DNA from: Labia minor
Lineage: Eukaryota > Arthropoda > Insecta > Dermaptera > Spongiphoridae
NCBI GenBank assembly: GCA_963082975.1
Contig: OY720344.1
Span: forward strand, 17,719,580 to 17,783,579
DNA length: 64,000 nt
Reading direction: 5' to 3'
Below, in pieces: positions 4,611 through 52,412 of the stretch (position 1 is its first letter; each line of letters begins with the position of its first letter). The notes beneath the pieces are model-generated. The model did not search any database. It had not been told where the DNA came from and worked only from the letters and a program-made list of their open reading frames with translations. The position numbers were made by a program, and so were the translations under genes.

Positions 4611-5222
4611 TGCGAGGTTTGTTCAAAAGAAAAGGTGAATTTTGAATTATTTCGGTAAGTATCCATTTTGTCTCCCCTTCAAAGTAATTCTCCTCAAATA
4701 TAATGCACTTCCAAACGTCGAAGCACTTCTGAATTTCGGTATGGCCATCAGCTCGTTCTTCGATTTCGACTTTATCTCATCTATTGAGGCAAAACGCTTT
4801 CCTTTCTTGGTCTCTTCAGTTTGGGAATAGGAAAAAGTCGCAGGGAGCCAAATCTGGTGAATATAGTGGTAGAGGCATGATTACGGTGTTATTTTTGGCC
4901 AAAAAATCACGAACAAGCAATGATGTGAGTGTGACCTGGTGCAGAATCCATGATTTGTTTTTCAACAATTTCGATCGTTTGAGCTGTATTGCAAACGTTG
5001 CATAACTTCCTTGTAGTATTCCTTATTTTTTTTAAGTAAAAAATTGAAGAACACACAAAACGTGACTAACTTTTTCAGAAGTCAAAAACAAACTACTCCA
5101 AAATGGCTGGTAATGTCAACATATGAGAAACATGTATCAACATAACAAAAAAAAAAATCGATAATCAAATGTACACAGCACGAGAAAATTCAAAACTCAC
5201 CTTTTCTTTTTCACAGACCTCG
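4611..5222 (-). pseudogene. Mariner family-1 relic, internally deleted
   Basis: Terminal repeats CGAGGTTTGTTCAAAAGAAA (left) and TTTTCACAGACCTCG (right) are opposed, with TA beside each end. Read on the minus strand, the inner part gives a mariner transposase C-terminal half with frameshifts: LLVRDFLAKNN.. then PLYSPDLAPCDFFLFPKL, which carries the last catalytic Asp of the D,D34D triad. The N-terminal half is missing. The plus-strand frames at 4642-5005 are shadows. Confidence 0.8.
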
Positions 5223-5448
5223 TATATAATATTTTAACAGCTGATACACCAAGATTTGAAATGAAAAAAATGGCTTGATTCCGCACAAGTTTTTGTTTGG
5301 AACTCTATAAAATAAAAAAAAAGTTGAAAGAAGTATTTTTGAGCATATTTTACTTTTTTTATTATCTAAAGGTAAAAAAAGGAAAAAGACAAATTTAAAA
5401 TTATAAAATCCTTTGATTGCAATATATATATATATATATATATATATA

Positions 5449-16062: not shown

Positions 16063-16994
16063 CGAGGCTTGCTCAAAAGGAAAGGTGAATTTTGAATTTT
16101 CGCCGGCTGTGTTGGTAAACATATGTTGCTGATATGTTTACATTATCAGCCATTTTGGATTAGTAGTTTGTTTTTGACAACTGAAAAAGTTAGTCACGTT
16201 TTGTGGGTTCTTCAAATTTTTACTTAAAAGGAAAAATTAAGGAATACTACAAGGAAGTTAAGTAACGTTTGCGTGAAGCAATATGATTCAAACGATCGGA
16301 ATTGTGGAAAAACAAATCATGGATTCAGCATCACGATAATGCACCAGCTCACACATCATTGCTTGTTCGTAATTTTTTGGCCAAAAATAACACCGTAATC
16401 ATACCTCTACCACTGTATTCACCAGATTTGGCTCCCTACGACTTTTTCTTATTCCCAAAACTGAAGTGACCAATGAAAGGAAAGCGTTTTGCCTCAATTG
16501 ATGAGATAAGTAAAAAATCGAAGTGACTAACTTTTTCAACTTTGTCAAAAATAAACTACTAATCCAAAATGGCTGATAATGTCAACATATGAGAAACATA
16601 TGTGTACCAACATAACAAAAAAAAAGAAAACAGTGAGCAAAACCTCATCGTCATCAACATTTTCTTGGCCCTCTGTAAACCGCTTGTATCACTTATAAAC
16701 ATTTTTTTGAGACAAAGTAGACTCGTTGAATACCACAGTCAACATTTTAAGTGTGTTGAAGCACTTTATTTCATTTTTAACGCAAAATTTAATACAGATT
16801 CTTTGATCCATTTTTTTTAAGTAAAAAATCAAAGAAAACTTTTTCAATTGCCAAAAACCAACCACTAATCCAAAATGGCTTATTATGTCAACATATGAGA
16901 AACATAAGGGTACCGCATAACAAAAAATTTCGATAATCGAATGTACACTGCCCGCGAAAACTCAAAATTCACCTTTTCTTCTGAACAGACCTCG
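16063..16994. pseudogene. Mariner family-1 relic, rearranged
   Basis: It starts CGAGGCTTGCTCAAAAGGAA after TA and ends TTCTGAACAGACCTCG. The left half reads on the plus strand (ACATCATTGCTTGTTCG..., YSPDLAPYDFFLFPKL around 16415-16465). From about 16520 the text turns over to the minus orientation, with two copies of the CTAATCCAAAATGGCT terminal region (16558 and 16866) and an HTH segment in reverse. It looks like two fragments joined head to head. No intact ORF remains. Confidence 0.7.
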
Positions 16995-17740
16995 AATACT
17001 GTATTTATTATTGTAATTTCTCCTGACATATTATATTTTACAATTCACTTTACTTCTACTTTCAAATATTTCAAATATTTATTCTGAATATGTTATTCTA
17101 AAAAGACATCTTCCATTCTAAATTTAATTCATTTTCTGGTTTATTATTAAACGCTGGGGAAGGTAATTCTTAATATTTAATTCAAATTATTATTTTATTT
17201 TTTATTTTTTCCTTTATTGATATTTTTTTCAAAGTTAAAAATATAAAGATACAAAATACTATAGGTAAATTTAATTTAATTTTTTATTTGTGTATCATCA
17301 CATATACAAATTACATATATATATGGAAATAAAAATATAGAAAAATAAATGAAACTAAAGACGATATGCTGAGGTCAACTTACAAACCTAAACCGATAAA
17401 TTTTATTACAATAATTCTAGATTGGAATTGCTAGAATTTATATTTACTATCTGGCATGTATGGACAGGTGTAAGTAGGGATCGGATCAGCAAACATTTTT
17501 ACATAAATTTATATTAAAGAATTTGTATTAAAAATTAATTTCTTAATACAGTACTTTAAATAAAGTAATAAAAGACACCATCTAGTCAGAGTGGAAACAA
17601 AATACAGGTCCCAGACCTGACAAGAGAATTTTCTCTAGCTGAGGCCTATGGGAACTGGCAATTTTATAAAGTAGTATAATAATCCCAGTTTAAAGTATAC
17701 ACATTTTTAAATGTTGTTGAGGAACCAGGTACTATATATA
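16995..17740. other. AT-rich spacer with a SINE scrap
   Basis: Nothing coding. At 17600-17660 CAGGTCCCAGACCTGACAAG and TTTTCTCTAGCTGAGG resemble the middle of the SINE at 33180-33412 on the opposite strand. Confidence 0.4.
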
Positions 17741-17831
17741 CGAGGCATGTTCAAAAGAAAAGGTGAATTTTGAGTTTTCGTGGGCACATTCGATTATCGA
17801 TATTTTTTTTATGTTGGTATACATATATGGT

Positions 17832-17868
<37 letters not shown>

Positions 17869-18057
17869 CAGCCATTTTGGATTAGTAGTTTTTTTTTTTT
17901 TTTTTGAAAAAGTTAGTCACGTTTTTGTGTGTTCTCTATCTCTATTAAATTTTGCGTTAAAAATGGAATAAAGTGCTCCAACACACTTAAAATGTTGACT
18001 GTGGCGATCGGGGAGTCTACTTTGTCTCAAAAAAATGTTTATAAGTGGCACAAACGC
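17741..18057 (+). pseudogene. Mariner family-1 relic, left part (split by the PLE array)
   Basis: Starts CGAGGCATGTTCAAAAGAAA after TA. The frame later reads MLTVAIGESTLSQKNVYKWHK, a mariner N-terminal HTH, and breaks at 18057 where the PLE array begins. It resumes at 26599 with the same TGGCACAAACGC. A (TA)n run (17829-17864) and a poly-T disrupt the 5' untranslated part. Confidence 0.85.
18046..18057. repeat. Target-site duplication of the PLE array, left copy
   Basis: TGGCACAAACGC here is identical to 26599-26610. Joining the mariner text across the array with one copy removed restores a continuous mariner transposase region, so the 12 bp are duplicated target DNA. Confidence 0.95.
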
Positions 18058-18477
18058 ATTTATTAAAGCTTTTGTGGTTATTTTGATAATTATTAAGAGA
18101 ATTTTTATTAAAAGACCACATTATTTGTATAAAATTATTTATTAAATTAAAATAATTGTACAACGTTTCAACTGCTTATTCTGCAGTCGTTTTCAAGTAA
18201 CCGTACGCTTGCTCCGATTCAAGCGGACTGATGCATGTCGGGACACGTCACCTCTTATATAGGCAGTGATATTGGCGCCAATTTTTGGCTCCAATTTTTA
18301 CCGCCAATTCTTAATCTCAACATGAAGTCAGCAGCAATTGTCAAAGCAAGCGTTTACAATCAAGAAGTATGATAGTGCATTATGTCTCTAAAATGAAGAT
18401 ACTAAATTATTTCCATAATCAAGATATATACACAAATACACATTAGATTAATTATATTTAATTTAATTTGACAAATT
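18058..18477 (-). repeat. PLE pseudo-LTR, left outer
   Basis: In element orientation it holds the 3' untranslated region followed by the start of a next unit: TATATAAGAGGTGACG, the hairpin at 18162-18191, and the first codons of the ORF (ATG complement at 18119-18121). It is the same text as 20787-21206. Confidence 0.9.
18162..18191 (-). ncRNA. Hammerhead-like hairpin in PLE pseudo-LTR
   Basis: In element sense: AACG-ACTGC-AGAATAA-GCAGT-TGAAA-CGTT. The order CTGNNGA, short stem, GAAAC, GTT resembles the minimal hammerhead ribozymes known from PLE pseudo-LTRs. The first core box reads CTGCAGA instead of CTGANGA, so activity is doubtful. Identical copies lie at 20891-20920, 23768-23797 and 26497-26526. 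Confidence 0.4.
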
Positions 18478-20850
18478 TTACTCATCCAACACTATGTTCC
18501 ACATCTTATTAAGTCTATATCCATCCTCTTTGTTAATATTATTGGGATGATTATCAATTTCTATAGATTCTTTTATTTTTCTTTTCCACCAATTATTTTC
18601 AATATGAAGTGTTTCTACATTATCTAAATTTATTTTATGTCCTGTTGTTAAGGCATGTTCTGCAATTGCTGATTGATTTGGATGTTTCAATCTAATGGCT
18701 CTCTCATGTTCAGACAGTCTTGTAGAAATCTTTCTACTTGTTTCACCAATGTATACTTTTTTGCATTCACAAGTTACCTTATAAACTCCATTATTTTCGT
18801 TTTTAATTTTGTCTTTTATATTTGAGGTGAGAGAAGACATTTGTTTATGAGGTTTATATGTTACTCTGATGTTGTGTTTCCTCAATTTTGACGCTATTTT
18901 TTCTGTTGTTCCTTTTATATAAGGTAATGTTATTTGTGATCTGTATATTGGTTTTTCATTTTCATTTTTGATTTCTGTCTTTTTTGTTTTACTGAATTTC
19001 CTAATTTCATATTCCGAGAAGCCATTGTTTATGAAAGCTTCCTTCAATCGTTGTTTTTCTTTTTTAATGTTTTCATTTGAGCATATCTCTTCGGCTCTTT
19101 TGTGCAGTGTTTTTATCACTCCATATTTTTGTGATGGATGGTGGTGGGAATCTGCGTGGATATATCTGTTGGTGTGAGTTGTTTTCCTGAAAATATCAAA
19201 CCTCAATCTATTCTGTTTCTTTTTAATTAATACATCAAGAAACGGTAACTCTTCATTTATTTCCCATTCAACGCTTAGTTTTATATTTTTATGTAAATTA
19301 TTTGCTGCTTCTACAAATTTAACTAAAGAATCCTTACCATGAGGCCAAATCATCAAAATATCATCCACATATCTAAGAAACAGTTTTGGTTTCTTTATTG
19401 CATTATTGACCAATTTTGATTCAAATTCTTCCATGAATATGTTAGCGAATACTGGGCTTAGTGGACTACCCATAGCACATCCTTCTTTTTGCTTATAAAT
19501 CTTTTTATCATAAATAAAGTATGTAGATTTTTGGCAAAATTCTATTAATTCGAGAGTATTTTTATCTAATGTAATGTTTGATTTTATAATCTCAATGGTC
19601 TCGTCAATAGGAACATTTGTGTACAAGGAGTCCACATCCAGACTCACCAATATATCATTTTTTGTAATTTCTACTTTTGATAACATTTCTACTAAGTGGG
19701 TGGAATTTTTAACGTATGAAAAATTAGTACCTGTAAATGGTTTTAACAAATGTGCTAGATATTTTGATGAGTTGTAAGTCACTGAATTGATTTGACTAAC
19801 TATTGGTCTTAAAGGTTTGTTGGTTTTATGGATTTTGGGATTACCGTATATTTTTGGTATTTGTGGATCTTTCGGTTTTAATTTATCTTTATCTTTTTCC
19901 TCAATAGGTAGATTCTTTATTATTGATTTTAGTTTTCTACAGAATTTATCCGTTGGATCTTTTTTCTGTATTTCGTAGGTAGAAGAATTCAAAATATTTT
20001 CCATTTTTTGTTTATAATCCGCTGTATTCATTACAACAGTGGCGTTACCTTTGTCGGCAGGGATAATCTTTAGAGAGTCATCGTTTCTAATTTCCTTCAG
20101 AGCACGCATCTCAGATTTGGTCAAATTTGGTTTGGGTGGTTTAGCATTTTTCAGTATGTTAATCGTATCAAATCTAATTTCCTCTGCAATGTTGTTTGGT
20201 AAGTTATATAAGGATGATTCAATTGAACTAACTATCTCAATTTTTGGAATTTTATTCGGTGCTATGGAGAACTTTGGTCCTTTTGCTAACACTGAGATGG
20301 TATTTTTGTCAAGACTTTTATTTGATAGATTGACTACTAATTTGTTATTATCAAAATTCTGAATAGATGTTTTAGTCTTATTGAATGAAAGTTTATCAAA
20401 TTTTGATTTTTGAATATCGGTTTGTTTTTTATGTGTAAATTTAAAGTGTGTCTGGGATACGTGCTGCAAATAAGAAATTTCTTCCTGGGTTAAAACAGAT
20501 TTTAGATTATTATATATATTGAATAAATCAGTGTCTAATGTAAATAAAACTTGCCTGATATTTGTGATGCGTTCTCGTAACAGAGCCAAACTAGCATTAT
20601 TATATATGCTAGTCGCTCTTTTTGTGTATACAACTCGCTTAATATAAAAGCCTTTTGGTATAATATCTTGATCACGACATCTTTTTAAGAAATTCAAAGA
20701 ACTTAATAATTTTGCTTTTTTAACAATTAATCCATCATAACTCCTTACCTGCTTTTGAATTTTTAGGTTATATTTCTCATAAATGTATTTATTAAAGCTT
20801 TTGTGGTTATTTTGATAATTATTAAGAGAATTTTTATTAAAAGACCACAT
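18478..20850 (-). CDS. Penelope-like reverse transcriptase with GIY-YIG endonuclease (full copy, minus)
   Basis: Intact 790-residue frame from the first ATG (20850, MWSFNKNSLN); the open frame extends 14 codons further up to a TTG at 20892. Numbered from that TTG, the N-terminal region has the PLE block PADKGNATVV (278-287). The RT palm carries SLDVDSLYTNVP (417-428), GCAMGSPLSP (471-480) and catalytic YVDD (508-511). The C-terminal GIY-YIG nuclease shows GVY (702-704), YIG (714-716), the catalytic Arg 725, and the Cys-x-Cys and His residues of its zinc-binding motif (CEC at about 708-710, H729). PLE proteins nick DNA and reverse-transcribe their RNA at the nick. The length is usual for the family. 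It is identical to the plus copy at 23838-26210. Confidence 0.95.
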   Translation of the reverse strand: MWSFNKNSLNNYQNNHKSFNKYIYEKYNLKIQKQVRSYDGLIVKKAKLLSSLNFLKRCRDQDIIPKGFYIKRVVYTKRATSIYNNASLALLRERITNIRQVLFTLDTDLFNIYNNLKSVLTQEEISYLQHVSQTHFKFTHKKQTDIQKSKFDKLSFNKTKTSIQNFDNNKLVVNLSNKSLDKNTISVLAKGPKFSIAPNKIPKIEIVSSIESSLYNLPNNIAEEIRFDTINILKNAKPPKPNLTKSEMRALKEIRNDDSLKIIPADKGNATVVMNTADYKQKMENILNSSTYEIQKKDPTDKFCRKLKSIIKNLPIEEKDKDKLKPKDPQIPKIYGNPKIHKTNKPLRPIVSQINSVTYNSSKYLAHLLKPFTGTNFSYVKNSTHLVEMLSKVEITKNDILVSLDVDSLYTNVPIDETIEIIKSNITLDKNTLELIEFCQKSTYFIYDKKIYKQKEGCAMGSPLSPVFANIFMEEFESKLVNNAIKKPKLFLRYVDDILMIWPHGKDSLVKFVEAANNLHKNIKLSVEWEINEELPFLDVLIKKKQNRLRFDIFRKTTHTNRYIHADSHHHPSQKYGVIKTLHKRAEEICSNENIKKEKQRLKEAFINNGFSEYEIRKFSKTKKTEIKNENEKPIYRSQITLPYIKGTTEKIASKLRKHNIRVTYKPHKQMSSLTSNIKDKIKNENNGVYKVTCECKKVYIGETSRKISTRLSEHERAIRLKHPNQSAIAEHALTTGHKINLDNVETLHIENNWWKRKIKESIEIDNHPNNINKEDGYRLNKMWNIVLDE

Positions 20851-21206
20851 TATTTGTATAAAATTATTTATTAAATTAAAATAATTGTACAACGTTTCAA
20901 CTGCTTATTCTGCAGTCGTTTTCAAGTAACCGTACGCTTGCTCCGATTCAAGCGGACTGATGCATGTCGGGACACGTCACCTCTTATATAGGCAGTGATA
21001 TTGGCGCCAATTTTTGGCTCCAATTTTTACCGCCAATTCTTAATCTCAACATGAAGTCAGCAGCAATTGTCAAAGCAAGCGTTTACAATCAAGAAGTATG
21101 ATAGTGCATTATGTCTCTAAAATGAAGATACTAAATTATTTCCATAATCAAGATATATACACAAATACACATTAGATTAATTATATTTAATTTAATTTGA
21201 CAAATT
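20787..21206 (-). repeat. PLE pseudo-LTR, left inner (5' region of the minus copy)
   Basis: Repeats 18058-18477 with an offset of 2729. It lies upstream of the full minus ORF and includes its start, so it would carry the promoter. The TATATAAGAGG word about 160 bases before the ATG (complement near 20985-20998) is a possible TATA-like element. Confidence 0.9.
20891..20920 (-). ncRNA. Hammerhead-like hairpin in PLE pseudo-LTR
   Basis: Same 30 bases as at 18162-18191. Here it sits just upstream of the full minus ORF. Confidence 0.4.
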
Positions 21207-22074
21207 TTACTCATCCAACACTATGTTCCACATCTTATTAAGTCTATATCCATCCTCTTTGTTAATATTATTGGGATGATTATCAATTTCTATAGATTCT
21301 TTTATTTTTCTTTTCCACCAATTATTTTCAATATGAAGTGTTTCTACATTATCTAAATTTATTTTATGTCCTGTTGTTAAGGCATGTTCTGCAATTGCTG
21401 ATTGATTTGGATGTTTCAATCTAATGGCTCTCTCATGTTCAGACAGTCTTGTAGAAATCTTTCTACTTGTTTCACCAATGTATACTTTTTTGCATTCACA
21501 AGTTACCTTATAAACTCCATTATTTTCGTTTTTAATTTTGTCTTTTATATTTGAGGTGAGAGAAGACATTTGTTTATGAGGTTTATATGTTACTCTGATG
21601 TTGTGTTTCCTCAATTTTGACGCTATTTTTTCTGTTGTTCCTTTTATATAAGGTAATGTTATTTGTGATCTGTATATTGGTTTTTCATTTTCATTTTTGA
21701 TTTCTGTCTTTTTTGTTTTACTGAATTTCCTAATTTCATATTCCGAGAAGCCATTGTTTATGAAAGCTTCCTTCAATCGTTGTTTTTCTTTTTTAATGTT
21801 TTCATTTGAGCATATCTCTTCGGCTCTTTTGTGCAGTGTTTTTATCACTCCATATTTTTGTGATGGATGGTGGTGGGAATCTGCGTGGATATATCTGTTG
21901 GTGTGAGTTGTTTTCCTGAAAATATCAAACCTCAATCTATTCTGTTTCTTTTTAATTAATACATCAAGAAACGGTAACTCTTCATTTATTTCCCATTCAA
22001 CGCTTAGTTTTATATTTTTATGTAAATTATTTGCTGCTTCTACAAATTTAACTAAAGAATCCTTACCATGAGGC
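21207..22074 (-). pseudogene. 5'-truncated PLE copy (minus)
   Basis: The last 289 codons of the PLE protein (from PHGKDSLVKFVEAANNL to the stop) are repeated exactly, but the RT catalytic motifs, including YVDD, are absent. The copy breaks at GAGGC (22070-22074), where the central patchwork begins. The ATG at 22076 is not a PLE start codon. With the full copy downstream it forms the tandem that supplies a pseudo-LTR. Confidence 0.9.
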
Positions 22075-22131
22075 AAATCAATTCAGTGACTTACAACTCA
22101 TCAAAATATCTAAGAAACAGTTTTGGTTTCC
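22075..22131. other. Patchwork junction at the centre of the PLE palindrome
   Basis: Bases 22075-22112 copy the plus-strand text found again at 22164-22201 (CAAATCAATTCAGTGACTTA...). From about 22106 the text switches back to the minus copy (ATATCTAAGAAACAGTTTTG, as at 19370-19393) and then folds at GGTTTCCAAAACC into the plus copy (22132, equivalent to 24861). Each switch sits on short shared words (CAAATCA, ATCAAAATATC, GGTTT/AAACC). This is the mark of strand switching during reverse transcription or repair. Confidence 0.85.
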
Positions 22132-23481
22132 AAAACCAACAAACCTTTAAGACCAATAGTTAGTCAAATCAATTCAGTGACTTACAACTCATCAAAATAT
22201 CTAGCACATTTGTTAAAACCATTTACAGGTACTAATTTTTCATACGTTAAAAATTCCACCCACTTAGTAGAAATGTTATCAAAAGTAGAAATTACAAAAA
22301 ATGATATATTGGTGAGTCTGGATGTGGACTCCTTGTACACAAATGTTCCTATTGACGAGACCATTGAGATTATAAAATCAAACATTACATTAGATAAAAA
22401 TACTCTCGAATTAATAGAATTTTGCCAAAAATCTACATACTTTATTTATGATAAAAAGATTTATAAGCAAAAAGAAGGATGTGCTATGGGTAGTCCACTA
22501 AGCCCAGTATTCGCTAACATATTCATGGAAGAATTTGAATCAAAATTGGTCAATAATGCAATAAAGAAACCAAAACTGTTTCTTAGATATGTGGATGATA
22601 TTTTGATGATTTGGCCTCATGGTAAGGATTCTTTAGTTAAATTTGTAGAAGCAGCAAATAATTTACATAAAAATATAAAACTAAGCGTTGAATGGGAAAT
22701 AAATGAAGAGTTACCGTTTCTTGATGTATTAATTAAAAAGAAACAGAATAGATTGAGGTTTGATATTTTCAGGAAAACAACTCACACCAACAGATATATC
22801 CACGCAGATTCCCACCACCATCCATCACAAAAATATGGAGTGATAAAAACACTGCACAAAAGAGCCGAAGAGATATGCTCAAATGAAAACATTAAAAAAG
22901 AAAAACAACGATTGAAGGAAGCTTTCATAAACAATGGCTTCTCGGAATATGAAATTAGGAAATTCAGTAAAACAAAAAAGACAGAAATCAAAAATGAAAA
23001 TGAAAAACCAATATACAGATCACAAATAACATTACCTTATATAAAAGGAACAACAGAAAAAATAGCGTCAAAATTGAGGAAACACAACATCAGAGTAACA
23101 TATAAACCTCATAAACAAATGTCTTCTCTCACCTCAAATATAAAAGACAAAATTAAAAACGAAAATAATGGAGTTTATAAGGTAACTTGTGAATGCAAAA
23201 AAGTATACATTGGTGAAACAAGTAGAAAGATTTCTACAAGACTGTCTGAACATGAGAGAGCCATTAGATTGAAACATCCAAATCAATCAGCAATTGCAGA
23301 ACATGCCTTAACAACAGGACATAAAATAAATTTAGATAATGTAGAAACACTTCATATTGAAAATAATTGGTGGAAAAGAAAAATAAAAGAATCTATAGAA
23401 ATTGATAATCATCCCAATAATATTAACAAAGAGGATGGATATAGACTTAATAAGATGTGGAACATAGTGTTGGATGAGTAA
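22132..23481 (+). pseudogene. 5'-truncated PLE copy (plus)
   Basis: Carries the last ~449 codons, from KTNKPLRPIVSQI through SLDVDSLYTNVP, GCAMGSPLSP, YVDD and the whole GIY-YIG domain, and matches the full plus copy at offset 2729. The frame is open but has no proper ATG start at its upstream end (a TTG at 22123 lies in the junction). It lacks the N-terminal third. It is longer than its minus counterpart, so the two inner copies were truncated at different points. Confidence 0.9.
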
Positions 23482-23869
23482 AATTTGTCAAATTAAATTA
23501 AATATAATTAATCTAATGTGTATTTGTGTATATATCTTGATTATGGAAATAATTTAGTATCTTCATTTTAGAGACATAATGCACTATCATACTTCTTGAT
23601 TGTAAACGCTTGCTTTGACAATTGCTGCTGACTTCATGTTGAGATTAAGAATTGGCGGTAAAAATTGGAGCCAAAAATTGGCGCCAATATCACTGCCTAT
23701 ATAAGAGGTGACGTGTCCCGACATGCATCAGTCCGCTTGAATCGGAGCAAGCGTACGGTTACTTGAAAACGACTGCAGAATAAGCAGTTGAAACGTTGTA
23801 CAATTATTTTAATTTAATAAATAATTTTATACAAATAATGTGGTCTTTTAATAAAAATTCTCTTAATAA
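23482..23869 (+). repeat. PLE pseudo-LTR, right inner
   Basis: 388 bases identical in wording to 26211-26598, running from the stop of the truncated copy into the first codons of the full plus copy. Contains TATATAAGAGGTGACGTGTC (about 23698-23717), a possible TATA-like site about 130 bases before the ATG, and the hairpin at 23768-23797. Confidence 0.9.
23768..23797 (+). ncRNA. Hammerhead-like hairpin in PLE pseudo-LTR
   Basis: Same motif as 18162-18191, on the plus strand, 41 bases before the ATG of the full plus copy. Confidence 0.4.
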
Positions 23870-26210
23870 TTATCAAAATAACCACAAAAGCTTTAATAAA
23901 TACATTTATGAGAAATATAACCTAAAAATTCAAAAGCAGGTAAGGAGTTATGATGGATTAATTGTTAAAAAAGCAAAATTATTAAGTTCTTTGAATTTCT
24001 TAAAAAGATGTCGTGATCAAGATATTATACCAAAAGGCTTTTATATTAAGCGAGTTGTATACACAAAAAGAGCGACTAGCATATATAATAATGCTAGTTT
24101 GGCTCTGTTACGAGAACGCATCACAAATATCAGGCAAGTTTTATTTACATTAGACACTGATTTATTCAATATATATAATAATCTAAAATCTGTTTTAACC
24201 CAGGAAGAAATTTCTTATTTGCAGCACGTATCCCAGACACACTTTAAATTTACACATAAAAAACAAACCGATATTCAAAAATCAAAATTTGATAAACTTT
24301 CATTCAATAAGACTAAAACATCTATTCAGAATTTTGATAATAACAAATTAGTAGTCAATCTATCAAATAAAAGTCTTGACAAAAATACCATCTCAGTGTT
24401 AGCAAAAGGACCAAAGTTCTCCATAGCACCGAATAAAATTCCAAAAATTGAGATAGTTAGTTCAATTGAATCATCCTTATATAACTTACCAAACAACATT
24501 GCAGAGGAAATTAGATTTGATACGATTAACATACTGAAAAATGCTAAACCACCCAAACCAAATTTGACCAAATCTGAGATGCGTGCTCTGAAGGAAATTA
24601 GAAACGATGACTCTCTAAAGATTATCCCTGCCGACAAAGGTAACGCCACTGTTGTAATGAATACAGCGGATTATAAACAAAAAATGGAAAATATTTTGAA
24701 TTCTTCTACCTACGAAATACAGAAAAAAGATCCAACGGATAAATTCTGTAGAAAACTAAAATCAATAATAAAGAATCTACCTATTGAGGAAAAAGATAAA
24801 GATAAATTAAAACCGAAAGATCCACAAATACCAAAAATATACGGTAATCCCAAAATCCATAAAACCAACAAACCTTTAAGACCAATAGTTAGTCAAATCA
24901 ATTCAGTGACTTACAACTCATCAAAATATCTAGCACATTTGTTAAAACCATTTACAGGTACTAATTTTTCATACGTTAAAAATTCCACCCACTTAGTAGA
25001 AATGTTATCAAAAGTAGAAATTACAAAAAATGATATATTGGTGAGTCTGGATGTGGACTCCTTGTACACAAATGTTCCTATTGACGAGACCATTGAGATT
25101 ATAAAATCAAACATTACATTAGATAAAAATACTCTCGAATTAATAGAATTTTGCCAAAAATCTACATACTTTATTTATGATAAAAAGATTTATAAGCAAA
25201 AAGAAGGATGTGCTATGGGTAGTCCACTAAGCCCAGTATTCGCTAACATATTCATGGAAGAATTTGAATCAAAATTGGTCAATAATGCAATAAAGAAACC
25301 AAAACTGTTTCTTAGATATGTGGATGATATTTTGATGATTTGGCCTCATGGTAAGGATTCTTTAGTTAAATTTGTAGAAGCAGCAAATAATTTACATAAA
25401 AATATAAAACTAAGCGTTGAATGGGAAATAAATGAAGAGTTACCGTTTCTTGATGTATTAATTAAAAAGAAACAGAATAGATTGAGGTTTGATATTTTCA
25501 GGAAAACAACTCACACCAACAGATATATCCACGCAGATTCCCACCACCATCCATCACAAAAATATGGAGTGATAAAAACACTGCACAAAAGAGCCGAAGA
25601 GATATGCTCAAATGAAAACATTAAAAAAGAAAAACAACGATTGAAGGAAGCTTTCATAAACAATGGCTTCTCGGAATATGAAATTAGGAAATTCAGTAAA
25701 ACAAAAAAGACAGAAATCAAAAATGAAAATGAAAAACCAATATACAGATCACAAATAACATTACCTTATATAAAAGGAACAACAGAAAAAATAGCGTCAA
25801 AATTGAGGAAACACAACATCAGAGTAACATATAAACCTCATAAACAAATGTCTTCTCTCACCTCAAATATAAAAGACAAAATTAAAAACGAAAATAATGG
25901 AGTTTATAAGGTAACTTGTGAATGCAAAAAAGTATACATTGGTGAAACAAGTAGAAAGATTTCTACAAGACTGTCTGAACATGAGAGAGCCATTAGATTG
26001 AAACATCCAAATCAATCAGCAATTGCAGAACATGCCTTAACAACAGGACATAAAATAAATTTAGATAATGTAGAAACACTTCATATTGAAAATAATTGGT
26101 GGAAAAGAAAAATAAAAGAATCTATAGAAATTGATAATCATCCCAATAATATTAACAAAGAGGATGGATATAGACTTAATAAGATGTGGAACATAGTGTT
26201 GGATGAGTAA
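23838..26210 (+). CDS. Penelope-like reverse transcriptase with GIY-YIG endonuclease (full copy, plus)
   Basis: Intact frame from ATG 23838 to TAA 26210, 790 residues; an in-frame TTG at 23796 would add 14. Same domains as the minus copy: an N-terminal PLE region, RT fingers/palm with SLDVDSLYTNVP, GCAMGSPLSP and YVDD, then RKTTHTNRYIHADSHHHPSQ, typical of PLEs, and a C-terminal GIY-YIG nuclease (GVYKVTC, KKVYIGETSRKISTRLSEH). No intron, stop or frameshift is visible. It is flanked by pseudo-LTRs 23482-23869 and 26211-26598. Identity with the minus copy implies recent formation or homogenisation of the two arms. Confidence 0.95.
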   Translation: MWSFNKNSLNNYQNNHKSFNKYIYEKYNLKIQKQVRSYDGLIVKKAKLLSSLNFLKRCRDQDIIPKGFYIKRVVYTKRATSIYNNASLALLRERITNIRQVLFTLDTDLFNIYNNLKSVLTQEEISYLQHVSQTHFKFTHKKQTDIQKSKFDKLSFNKTKTSIQNFDNNKLVVNLSNKSLDKNTISVLAKGPKFSIAPNKIPKIEIVSSIESSLYNLPNNIAEEIRFDTINILKNAKPPKPNLTKSEMRALKEIRNDDSLKIIPADKGNATVVMNTADYKQKMENILNSSTYEIQKKDPTDKFCRKLKSIIKNLPIEEKDKDKLKPKDPQIPKIYGNPKIHKTNKPLRPIVSQINSVTYNSSKYLAHLLKPFTGTNFSYVKNSTHLVEMLSKVEITKNDILVSLDVDSLYTNVPIDETIEIIKSNITLDKNTLELIEFCQKSTYFIYDKKIYKQKEGCAMGSPLSPVFANIFMEEFESKLVNNAIKKPKLFLRYVDDILMIWPHGKDSLVKFVEAANNLHKNIKLSVEWEINEELPFLDVLIKKKQNRLRFDIFRKTTHTNRYIHADSHHHPSQKYGVIKTLHKRAEEICSNENIKKEKQRLKEAFINNGFSEYEIRKFSKTKKTEIKNENEKPIYRSQITLPYIKGTTEKIASKLRKHNIRVTYKPHKQMSSLTSNIKDKIKNENNGVYKVTCECKKVYIGETSRKISTRLSEHERAIRLKHPNQSAIAEHALTTGHKINLDNVETLHIENNWWKRKIKESIEIDNHPNNINKEDGYRLNKMWNIVLDE

Positions 26211-26598
26211 AATTTGTCAAATTAAATTAAATATAATTAATCTAATGTGTATTTGTGTATATATCTTGATTATGGAAATAATTTAGTATCTTCATTTTAG
26301 AGACATAATGCACTATCATACTTCTTGATTGTAAACGCTTGCTTTGACAATTGCTGCTGACTTCATGTTGAGATTAAGAATTGGCGGTAAAAATTGGAGC
26401 CAAAAATTGGCGCCAATATCACTGCCTATATAAGAGGTGACGTGTCCCGACATGCATCAGTCCGCTTGAATCGGAGCAAGCGTACGGTTACTTGAAAACG
26501 ACTGCAGAATAAGCAGTTGAAACGTTGTACAATTATTTTAATTTAATAAATAATTTTATACAAATAATGTGGTCTTTTAATAAAAATTCTCTTAATAA
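26211..26598 (+). repeat. PLE pseudo-LTR, right outer
   Basis: Starts directly after the stop of the full plus copy and ends at CTCTTAATAA, where the target duplication begins. Includes the hairpin at 26497-26526 and the ATG of a would-be next unit (26567). Confidence 0.9.
26497..26526 (+). ncRNA. Hammerhead-like hairpin in PLE pseudo-LTR
   Basis: Fourth identical copy of the motif; it would lie near the 3' end of a transcript from the full plus copy. Confidence 0.4.
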
Positions 26599-26610
26599 TG
26601 GCACAAACGC
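26599..26610. repeat. Target-site duplication of the PLE array, right copy
   Basis: TGGCACAAACGC, identical to 18046-18057. Confidence 0.95.
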
Positions 26611-27172
26611 TTTAAAAAAGTTCGATCAAATGTGAAGGTTTTGCTCACTGTTTTCTTCGATTACAATGCCGTGGTGCATCACGAATGAGTTCTTGCCAAC
26701 AGGTCGTACTGTTAATAAGGAATACAATACAAGGAAGTTATGCAACGTTTGCGTGAAGTAATACGGCTCAAACGATCGGAATTGTGGAAAAAAAATTAAT
26801 GGATTCTGGATCACAATTATGCACCAGCTCATACATCATTGCTTGTTCGTGATTTTTTGGTCATAAACAACACCGTAATCATGCCTCAACCACAATATTG
26901 ACCAGATTTGGCTCTCTGCGACTTTTTCCTATTCCCAAAACTGAAGAGTCTAATGAAAGGAAAGCGTTTTGCCACAGTTGATGTGATTAAAGTCGCAATC
27001 GAAGAACGATCTGATGGCCATACCGAAAAGCACATTTCAGAAGTGCTTCGACGATTGGAAGTGCATTATATTTGAGGAGAATTACTTTGAAGGGGACAAA
27101 ATGGATATTGAGGAATAAATAAATACTTTTCGAAATAATTCAAAATTCACCTTTTCTTTTAAACAAACCTCG
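26599..27172 (+). pseudogene. Mariner family-1 relic, right part
   Basis: Continues the mariner cut at 18057. In broken frames it gives text like GRTVNKEY, MHQLIHHCLFV, DQIWLSATF and KSKNDLMAIPKST, matching the transposase C-terminal half of the copies at 4611-5222 and 50673-52412. It ends with the terminal repeat ATTCACCTTTTCTTTTAAAC and CCTCG at 27172; the expected TA after it reads TT. No functional frame remains, so this host was dead or dying when the PLE landed. Confidence 0.85.
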
Positions 27173-27202
27173 TTTGTTTTGGGATACTACAATAGTATAT
27201 AC

Positions 27203-50672: not shown

Positions 50673-52412
50673 GGAGGACTGTTCAAAAGAAAAGGTAAAT
50701 TTTGAATTTTCTCGGACTTTGTAAATTCAATTATCGAATTTTTTTGTTATGTTGGTACACATATGTTTCTTATATGTTGATAATATCAGCCATTTTGGAT
50801 TAGTAGTTTTTTCACAACTGAAAAAGTTAGTCACGTTTTTGTGTGATCTTCGATTTTTACCGACCGACGATAGTAAGGGAGGTATTTTTTTCACACCAAA
50901 TTTCACATGTGGAGATTTTTACATATCTCCACGAATCATGCATTTTCTTAACAGAAAAAAGTATTTTTAGCACGATGTCTGTTCGTCTGTCCGTCCGTTG
51001 TGTGTCCGTATAGACGTGTACAGATTGAATGGCTCGACAGATTTTGATAAAATTTGGTATATGTATTTACTTAATGCATAAGTAGCTTGAATTCATTAAT
51101 TTTCGATATATTTATATCCCGGAACCGTATGTGGTAGTTTCCAAAGTATTAATTTTATATTCATTGTCGGAAATTATTCTCTTACGGACATCATGTCTGT
51201 CCGTCCGTCCGTATAGATATGTACAGCCTGAACGGCTCAACGGATTTTGATGAGATTTGGTATATTTACTTAATGCATCAGTGGGATGAATGGATCAACT
51301 TTTGGTGCAAATCCGGAAACCGGAAGTGGTAGTATTAGCGATCGACGATAGGAAGGGAAGGGTTTTTTTCACACAAAATTTCACATGAGGAGATTTTTTT
51401 ATATATCACCACGAATCATCATGCACTTTGTATTGGTTTTATCCTCGGGAAAATCATATTTATTAGTTTTTTCTTGATTTAAAATTATATGACGTCATTC
51501 AGCCATTCATGACGTCACAGCCTGGTCTTGCATATATATTATAAATAAAATAAAATTAAAAATGTTTATATTTATTATTTATGTATGCCTATCTGTTTTT
51601 TATTACATTAATAGATATATTAAAATTATTTGAAATTGTTTCTGTAGCTGGAAATTAATTTATTTCAAACCGTCGGTCGGTTCGTACCTGGCCACAGGTC
51701 AACTTATTTACTTAAAAAATGATGGATCAAAGAATCTGTATTAAATTTTGTGATAAAAATGAAATAAAGTGCTCCCCAAAACACTTAAAATGATGACTGT
51801 GACATTCGGTAAGTCTACTTTGTCTCAAAAAAATGTTTATATACTTTACTTTACAAAAGAGAAGATGTTGATGACGATGAGCATTTGCTCACTGCTTTCT
51901 TCGATTACAATGCCGTGTGGTGCATCATGAATTCTTGACAACAGGTCGAAGTGTTAATAAGGAATACTACAAAGAAGTTATGTAACGTTTGCGTGAAGTA
52001 ATACGGCTCAAACGATCAGAATTTCGGAAAAACAAATTATGGATTCTGCACCAGGTCACATCTTTGCTTGTTCGTGATTTTTTGGCCAAAAACAACACCG
52101 TAATCAACACCTCAACCACCGTATTCACCAGATTTTGCTCCCTGTGATTTTTTCCTATTGCCAAAACTGAAGAGACCAATGAAAGGAAAGCGTTTTGCCA
52201 CAATTGATAAGATAAAGTCGCAATCGAAGAACGAGCTGATGGCCATACCGAAAAGCTCATTTCAGAAGTGCTTCGACGATTGGAAGAAGCGCTAGCATAA
52301 GTCCATTATATCTGAGGGGAATTACTTTAAAGAGGACAAAATGGATATTGATGAATAAATAAATACTTTTCGAAATAATTCAAAATTCACCTTTTCTTTT
52401 GAACAATCCTCG
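50673..52412 (+). pseudogene. Mariner family-1 relic split by HINE-A
   Basis: GGAGGACTGTTCAAAAGAAA start (first base changed) and ACCTTTTCTTTTGAACAATCCTCG-type end. The left 180 bases, up to TTCGATTTTT, continue at 51710 after the HINE-A. The transposase pieces read MTVTFGKSTLSQKNVYKWY-like text near 51795, KREDVDDDEHLLTAFFDYN, then, after frameshifts, LLVRDFLAKNNTV.. and FSPDFAPCDFFLLPKLKR-like text around 52060-52180. With the insert removed it is the most complete family-1 copy in the window, yet several stops and frameshifts kill it. Opposite-strand frames are shadows. Confidence 0.85.
50859..51706 (+). mobile_element. HINE-A copy 6, mosaic of A2 and A1
   Basis: Begins ACCGACCGACGATAGTAAGG after TTTTT. 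The first 320 bases, including the A2-only TTTCCAAAGTATTAATTTTA and TTCATTGTCGGAAATTATTC, are A2. At 51180 (CTTACGGACATCATGTCTGTCC) it restarts at the GTCY block as A1 and ends CCGTCGGTCGGTTCGTACC + CTGGCCACAGG. The element therefore carries two cores and two GTCY runs. Confidence 0.8.

What the first reader, a model, noticed from the sequence alone, without database searches (positions are those of the whole stretch)
18058..26598. Head-to-head inverted dimer of a Penelope-like element with intact identical ORFs and one target duplication
Seen: full minus copy, truncated minus copy, 57 bp junction, truncated plus copy, full plus copy. Both full ORFs encode the same protein, and one 12 bp duplication (TGGCACAAACGC) brackets all 8541 bp. 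Known: PLEs form tandem and inverted arrays. Inference: the whole array entered in one event, or grew at one site with later homogenisation. Two facing intact RT/GIY-YIG genes with four pseudo-LTRs form a near-perfect palindrome that could give self-complementary RNA.
Basis: partly seen in the sequence, partly recalled or inferred. Interest (0 to 1): 0.9.

Follow-up and report, generated by a model that had tools for sequence, protein, structure and literature searches.

The report
Two-sided insertion of a Penelope retrotransposon
A jumping gene of the Penelope type has landed as two mirror-image copies inside one target site, and comparison with dozens of sister insertions in the same genome suggests that each jump often starts copying from both cut DNA strands at once, one strand using each of two fixed start points in the RNA.

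Summary
Window 18058-26598 is a head-to-head PLE dimer with one 12-bp duplication. Its arms are identical over 3,985 bp, both encode the same 790-aa ORF, and a 57-bp patchwork joins them. The same architecture recurs at many other targets, and the joined mariner flanks match 247 places in the genome (up to 3 mismatches).

I examined the 72 clusters behind the first 100 listed pLTR hits (exact matches, chromosome C1, 0-71 Mb). Of these, 40 have two arms, 3' ends outward; none is bounded tail-to-tail.

The new point is a pairing rule. The element RNA has two reverse-transcription start sites 31 nt apart: N (no tail) and T (with tail). Of 38 two-armed insertions with a target duplication, 36 have one N and one T end, 1 is N/N, 1 is N/downstream, none T/T. 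One further locus elsewhere was also T/N. Arms of one insertion share source variants in 31 of 32 informative cells (15% when partners are shuffled); 30 of 30 inner junctions differ.

Best explanation: two-sided target-primed reverse transcription. Both 3' ends of a staggered cut prime on one RNA (or sister RNAs), one at N and one at T; the cDNA ends are then joined.

The parts
18046..18057 (.). target-site duplication, left copy (TGGCACAAACGC)
   Evidence: exact repeat; the joined flanks with one copy match 247 places
26599..26610 (.). target-site duplication, right copy; its first T also fits the element end
18058..22074 (-). T arm: cDNA whose 3' end lies at the T start site; one full unit plus truncated unit (inner end u1473)
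18058..18088 (-). 31-nt tail, the stretch between the N and T start sites, present only at this outer end
18478..20850 (-). intact 790-aa RT/endonuclease ORF, minus copy
22075..22131 (.). junction filler: + piece u1024-1062 (22074-22112), 7-nt overlap ATATCTA, - piece u1449-1425 (22106-22130)
22132..26598 (+). N arm: cDNA whose 3' end lies at the N start site; truncated unit 22132-23870 plus full unit from 23871
23838..26210 (+). intact 790-aa RT/endonuclease ORF, plus copy
24855..25424 (+). reverse transcriptase domain (Pfam RVT_1, residues 340-529)
   Evidence: E 4e-16
25899..26033 (+). GIY-YIG-type endonuclease motif region (GVYKVTCECKKVYIG ... AEH)
   Evidence: motif reading on the alignment with six relatives; not detected by Pfam
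17740..18045 (.). left part of a decayed mariner-like copy into which the array inserted (terminal repeat 17740-17776)
26611..27173 (.). right part of the same mariner-like copy (terminal repeat 27137-27173)

Best explanation
This is one insertion of a Penelope/Poseidon-type retroelement made by two-sided target-primed reverse transcription. The endonuclease makes a staggered cut (modal 12 nt, 3' overhangs). The 3' end of each strand primes reverse transcription of element RNA with a few base pairs of microhomology. One strand starts at site N, the other at site T, 31 nt further 3'. Both cDNAs run towards the RNA 5' end (here through a tandem transcript, hence full plus truncated unit), stop at different points, and are joined in the middle by microhomology or templated-filler end joining. 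Filling the overhangs gives one duplication. Shown by sequence: head-to-head layout, one duplication, N/T pairing, shared variants between arms, unrelated inner junctions, priming microhomology. Inferred: that N and T are used once each because both cDNAs are drawn from one RNA molecule (N first, T second with displacement), and that host end joining closes the centre.
For: Two-armed insertions with a duplication: first sample 29 of 30 T/N, 1 N/N; held-out rest of the 72 clusters 7 of 8 T/N, 1 N/u138; one extra locus at 93.26 Mb T/N. For 36 of 37 pairs with both ends in the N or T zone p = 2.8e-10 against independent choice. With zones narrowed to 10 nt either side, the first sample gives 25 T/N, 1 N/N and 4 outside. 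By pLTR order 17 head-to-head, 0 tail-to-tail clusters of 72. Arms share recurrent variants in 31 of 32 cells against mean 15% shuffled, 0 of 5,000; young long arms 11 of 11 (29% shuffled, 1 of 5,000 reached it). Arm length class agrees in 24 of 28 (Fisher p = 2.7e-4). Priming microhomology 2.3 (T) and 2.2 (N) nt against 0.7 with swapped flanks. 30 of 30 inner junctions distinct. Independent biochemistry: Frangieh et al. 2024 (PMC11167929) report that an Anolis PLE protein cuts and extends both strands and starts at two adjacent internal sites that match the genomic tail.
Against: L061 is N/N; L080 pairs N with u138; L054 pairs T with about u388 and has no clear duplication; L030 is T/N but its duplication was not found. 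The N and T zones (u2700 to u11; u20 to u60) were set after seeing the first sample; 4 of its 30 pairs have one end more than 10 nt from its site (L016, L025, L047, L058). Single-armed insertions exist: with a clear duplication, 12 N and 4 T in the first sample. The shared variants show a common source, not strictly one molecule; two RNAs from one locus would look the same. Frangieh et al. [quoted passage not shown] Copying an RNA a second time needs strand displacement, not shown for this enzyme. Only one family in one genome was sampled, and only exact pLTR matches on one chromosome arm's worth of sequence.
Confidence: 0.8

Rival explanations
1. Two RNAs from the same source locus are loaded on an asymmetric protein dimer, one subunit being set to start at N and the other at T.
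For: Fits pairing, shared variants and the predicted PLE protein dimer in Frangieh et al. 2024.
Against: No direct evidence for an asymmetric dimer; needs both RNAs to come from one locus in nearly every case.
Confidence: 0.3
2. Self-priming or fold-back: one cDNA (or an antisense RNA) folds back and is copied into its own complement, giving the mirror arms (self-priming on an antisense template was proposed for rotifer Penelopes by Arkhipova et al. 2013).
For: Explains head-to-head layout and variant sharing; small fold-backs at a 5' end do occur here (L018, L057).
Against: A copied arm would be expected to carry the same start site at its end, but 36 of 38 pairs with a duplication have one N and one T. 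Inner arm ends differ and junctions are mostly microhomology or filler, not perfect hairpins.
Confidence: 0.07
3. Two separate insertions at one place, or stepwise growth followed by gene conversion between arms.
For: Arms of the window copy are identical over 3,985 bp.
Against: One duplication per array, matches to the unfilled site with a single copy, no tail-to-tail arrays, and old arms with unconverted private differences.
Confidence: 0.03
4. Retrotransposition of a read-through RNA from an already inverted source copy.
For: Would give shared variants and a T end opposite an N end.
Against: All 30 inner junctions examined are different, whereas copies of one source would share its junction.
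Confidence: 0.02
5. Assembly artefact.
For: Large perfect palindromes are hard to assemble; some fetched loci carry runs of N (L003, L031).
Against: Many short dimers (about 200-430 bp in all) show the same structure with distinct target duplications.
Confidence: 0.02

Closest known systems
Poseidon from Anolis carolinensis (PAc), Penelope/Poseidon clade
   Same: RT plus C-terminal GIY-YIG, pLTR tandems, optional 30-40-bp tail explained by two RT start sites; cuts and extends both strands in vitro (PMC11167929). An A. carolinensis protein, P0006, is 40% identical over 98% of the query; that P0006 is PAc itself is my assumption.
   Different: No canonical hammerhead core found here; pairing of the two start sites across the two strands is not reported in the parts I read, which state no start-site difference between strands.
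Adineta vaga Pen families (Pen2a_Av etc.)
   Same: Head-to-head inverted pLTRs, partial tandems, 8-10-bp duplications, 31-bp tail optionally at one inverted pLTR (PMC3846280).
   Different: Authors proposed self-priming on an antisense template; I saw no count of end pairing in the passages and Discussion that I read.
R2 and LINE-1 target-primed reverse transcription, including L1 twin priming
   Same: Nicked target primes cDNA; 5' truncation; microhomology (general knowledge).
   Different: From general knowledge: L1 twin priming divides one RNA into non-overlapping parts, whereas here both arms copy the same stretch and both outer ends are RNA 3' regions.

Membership tests
Penelope-like elements, EN-containing (Penelope/Poseidon) | reverse transcriptase domain | tested here: met
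   Pfam RVT_1, E 4e-16
Penelope-like elements, EN-containing (Penelope/Poseidon) | C-terminal GIY-YIG endonuclease | tested here: inconclusive
   GVY...YIG motif aligned with six relatives, but Pfam gave no GIY-YIG hit at E up to 5 for this protein, its last 200 residues or P0006, so this rests on motif reading
Penelope-like elements, EN-containing (Penelope/Poseidon) | partial tandem units giving pseudo-LTRs | tested here: met
   2,729-bp period in both arms; an arm of 3.05 units in L035
Penelope-like elements, EN-containing (Penelope/Poseidon) | optional 30-40-bp tail | tested here: met
   31 nt between N and T ends
Penelope-like elements, EN-containing (Penelope/Poseidon) | AT-rich target, variable short duplication | tested here: met
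   duplications 11-23 bp, mode 12, in 29 T/N insertions; AT-rich sites. The window's own target is less AT-rich
Penelope-like elements, EN-containing (Penelope/Poseidon) | hammerhead ribozyme motif (common, not defining) | tested here: not met
   no Rfam hammerhead up to E 1; no CTGANGA...GAAA core in the unit
Penelope-like elements, EN-containing (Penelope/Poseidon) | placement in the clade by phylogeny | not tested
   only similarity search and alignment were run
Target-primed reverse transcription | cDNA starts at a nicked target end, with 5' truncation and a staggered-cut duplication | tested here: met
   sequence signature only:
Target-primed reverse transcription | enzyme activity on both strands | not testable with these tools
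   known for PAc in vitro (PMC11167929)

The most novel reading that the evidence does not exclude
The normal integration cycle of Penelope-like elements is a coupled two-strand reaction in which a single RNA is reverse-transcribed twice, once from each cut strand, with two start sites 31 nt apart each used once. The 'optional tail' is then not noise but the mark of which strand started at the downstream site, and inverted dimers are the default product, not an aberration.
Probability: 0.5. Interest if true: 0.8.

Novelty: new variant of a known kind. Interest (0 to 1): 0.68.

Why it matters
How Penelope-like elements make head-to-head inverted inserts, and why only some ends carry the tail, was left open in the papers I read; self-priming on antisense RNA was one published proposal. 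This genome, with over a thousand close pLTR matches, allows a statistical test. The result favours a coupled two-strand mechanism and makes clear predictions for the purified protein. It also explains how intact palindromic dimers arise in one step, and it is relevant to anyone using such enzymes for DNA writing, since two-sided priming would yield mirror-image double inserts. The element itself is a new member of a known family; the novelty lies in the integration rule.

Tried and rejected
Hammerhead ribozyme: looked for with Rfam and a core pattern, none found; the two Rfam rows, both below the gathering score, were judged chance. RNA hairpin around the N site: stem GUGGU/ACCAC predicted, but the 88-nt stretch folds no better than shuffles (z -0.25); a 141-nt stretch gave z -2.12 and a 221-nt one z -1.66, so no claim is made. 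Target asymmetry between the T-primed and N-primed strands: only a weak shared preference (T two bases after each cut), no clear difference; T lies on the left in 22 and on the right in 14 (p = 0.24). Independent PLE family in the same genome: the protein search never got an answer, so generality is untested. Gene conversion, serial insertion and inverted-source retrotransposition were considered and rejected (see rivals).

Rows dropped and limits: L031 (N gap) was not scored for a duplication and L018 gave none; L043, L054 and L058 (multi-piece or odd end) were left out of the variant comparison (29 of 32 two-armed loci used); L043, L054, L058 and L061 were left out of the arm-length table (28 used). 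The duplication score has high chance values in AT-rich flanks: with the right boundary shifted 20 times, the best control exceeded 6.5 in 24 of 58 loci (maximum 10.7); the real score beat its own control maximum in 47 of 49 accepted cases and in 30 of 30 two-armed ones. Arm lengths and T/N labels were typed by hand from the outputs; one search recomputed the labels from stored values and agreed. In one search the window's own junction was counted as simple with a 1-base gap because the aligner bridged its 57-bp filler; the count is corrected in the report.
Full report
Observation. The window holds a duplication TGGCACAAACGC at 18046-18057 and 26599-26610 and nowhere else. Between them lie a minus arm (18058-22074), a 57-bp junction and a plus arm (22132-26598). 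Each arm is a full 2,729-bp unit plus a truncated one; the arms are identical over 3,985 bp, and the plus arm's truncated and full units are identical over 1,738 bp. Both arms carry the same ORF, 790 aa from the first ATG, with an RVT_1 domain and a C-terminal GVY...YIG motif shared with relatives at 37-41% identity, one of them an Anolis carolinensis protein. Pfam itself did not report GIY-YIG.

Target. The flanks are two halves of a decayed mariner-like copy with terminal repeats at 17740-17776 and 27137-27173 (89% over 37 bp); joined at one duplication copy they read through a transposase-like frame (the likeness is read from memory), and other copies of the same repeat lie in the window. 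The joined 32-mer, allowing 3 mismatches, occurs 247 times in the 604-Mb genome (best 1 mismatch), the reversed control 0 times. The 100 listed places carry one copy of the 12 bp by construction of the pattern; I did not inspect them singly. The plain reading is that the whole 8.5 kb entered as one insertion and the 12 bp were single before.

Sampling. A 44-base pLTR stretch (at most 1 mismatch) occurs 633 + 642 times, control 0. The tool lists 100 places; all 100 are exact matches on C1 between 1 and 71 Mb, so copies with a mismatch in the 44-mer and the rest of the genome are not in the sample, and young copies are favoured. They form 72 clusters: 53 with one pLTR hit, 17 minus-then-plus (head-to-head), 2 direct only, 0 plus-then-minus. 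Every locus was compared with the window's unit, numbered so that an end without tail falls at u2729 (N) and an end with the 31-nt tail at u31 (T).

Anatomy of the 72. First sample (60): 32 two-armed, 14 with an N arm only, 11 with a T arm only, 2 with an N arm plus an internal piece, 1 not scored (L031, N gap). Duplications scored above 6.5 in 49 of 58 scored, and the 49 are all different; shifted controls also passed 6.5 at least once in 24 of 58 loci, but the real score beat its own control in 30 of 30 two-armed loci. Among 29 two-armed T/N copies lengths run 11-23, mode 12. Two-armed with a duplication: 29 T/N, 1 N/N (L061). Two more two-armed: L030 (T/N, no clear duplication) and L054 (T and about u388, none). 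The zones used (N: u2700 to u11; T: u20 to u60) were set after seeing this sample; with 10 nt either side of each site the count is 25 T/N, 1 N/N, 4 outside. Two T/N cases (L043, L058) are multi-piece. Held-out 12: 8 two-armed, all with a duplication, 7 T/N and 1 N/u138 (L080); the others are L077 N, L083 N, L078 T, L081 N plus internal piece. One more locus at 93.26 Mb, picked because its hits might have made it T/T, proved T/N. Over the 72 clusters that is 40 two-armed; of the 38 with a duplication 36 are T/N, 1 N/N, 1 N/downstream, 0 T/T. For the 37 with both ends at N or T, 36 discordant has p = 2.8e-10 if the two ends were chosen independently at even odds, the setting most favourable to discordance.

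Same source. In 29 two-armed insertions, variants seen in at least two loci were compared between arms: both arms carry the variant in 31 of 32 cells where either does; with partners shuffled the mean is 15% and none of 5,000 shuffles reaches the observed value. For nine insertions with long shared arms it is 11 of 11, against 29% (1 of 5,000 reached it). Part of this reflects age: old and young copies differ by subfamily, so sharing shows a common source and time, not one molecule. Older copies keep private differences between arms (L019: 6 of 112 positions), so later homogenisation is not the cause there. Arm length class agrees in 24 of 28.

Junctions and primers. All 30 inner junctions of the first sample differ. 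Of 22 simple ones (the window's own taken out), 10 overlap by 1-9 nt, 3 are blunt and 9 have 2-16 nt or a single base of filler; the rest are multi-piece. In the window the filler is a plus-strand piece u1024-1062, a 7-nt overlap, and a minus-strand piece u1449-1425, a pattern like end joining with templated filler (inference; the host enzyme is not identified). At the outer ends of 29 T/N insertions, target and RNA match by 2.3 (T) and 2.2 (N) nt on average, against 0.7 with flanks swapped between loci (maxima of 300 swaps 1.3 and 1.6). Frangieh et al. [quoted passage not shown]

Transcript starts. Of 90 element segments of 90 bp or more in 58 loci (internal pieces included), 15 stop at u2580-2594 and 23 at u2543-2570. 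The first group lies at ATCAGT about 30 nt after TATATAAG, which looks like a transcription start (motif reading from general knowledge); the 44-mer used for sampling begins at u2595, so ends further 3' are under-sampled for single-armed copies.

Mechanism. Head-to-head layout with one duplication means that both strands of a staggered cut were extended with RNA 3' regions at the target. This agrees with Frangieh et al. 2024 (PMC11167929; I read parts 1 and 2 of 4, i.e. the main text and the start of the methods), who find that the Anolis enzyme cuts and extends both strands and starts at two adjacent internal RNA sites that explain the tail. They report no start-site difference between strands; the present data agree that either strand can take either site (22 against 14, p = 0.24) but add that within one insertion the two strands take different sites. 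Arkhipova et al. 2013 (PMC3846280; passages and Discussion read) describe head-to-head as the most frequent form, a 31-bp tail on one inverted pLTR, and suggest self-priming. Self-priming would be expected to give equal ends, which is not seen. One RNA with two sites used once each is the simplest account; an asymmetric dimer with two sister RNAs is the main rival.

Literature limits. Searches and 64 of the open library gave no listing or abstract that reports the pairing; full texts other than those named were not read. Subscription papers and preprints (e.g. the early Drosophila virilis work, and a 2021 survey that one search showed is not held) were not seen, so an earlier notice is possible. 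For PMC12910113 I saw passages only.

The 5' ends of both genes point to the centre, so the genes diverge. A self-complementary RNA would need read-through and was not tested. The window is not the only such dimer: L036 also has two 790-aa ORFs in opposite arms, and L035 has three in one arm.

Noticed in passing
L061 (G000:C1:43859012-43863012): The only N/N two-armed insertion, with a 16-bp duplication; an exception to the pairing rule.
   Followed up: partly
L080 (1-1201) and L054 (221-4225): Two-armed insertions in which one arm starts well downstream of T (u138 and about u388), as if another downstream site can replace the second one.
   Followed up: partly
L010, L027, L039, L041, L065, L066: Single T-ended arms without a clear duplication; of 11 T-only copies in the first sample 4 have a clear duplication (a fifth, L057, is borderline), against 12 of 14 N-only copies.
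   Followed up: no
L018 (1706-3336), L057 (2939-3372): Short fold-back of 32-63 bp at the 5' end of a single arm, perhaps true self-priming events.
   Followed up: no
L035 (577-8887): One arm of 3.05 units with three 790-aa ORFs, opposite an arm of only 123 bp.
   Followed up: partly
L037, L068, L081: N arm followed by an inverted internal piece of the element (136-178 bp), as in template switching during closure of the centre.
   Followed up: no
window 4613-5228, 16132-16998, 50674-52412: Further decayed copies of the mariner-like repeat that served as target; the window is rich in repeated fragments.
   Followed up: partly
L017 (3100-3142, 3736-3865), L018 (1094-1136): Older, about 85% identical relatives of the element, with the tail sequence recognisable.
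   Followed up: no
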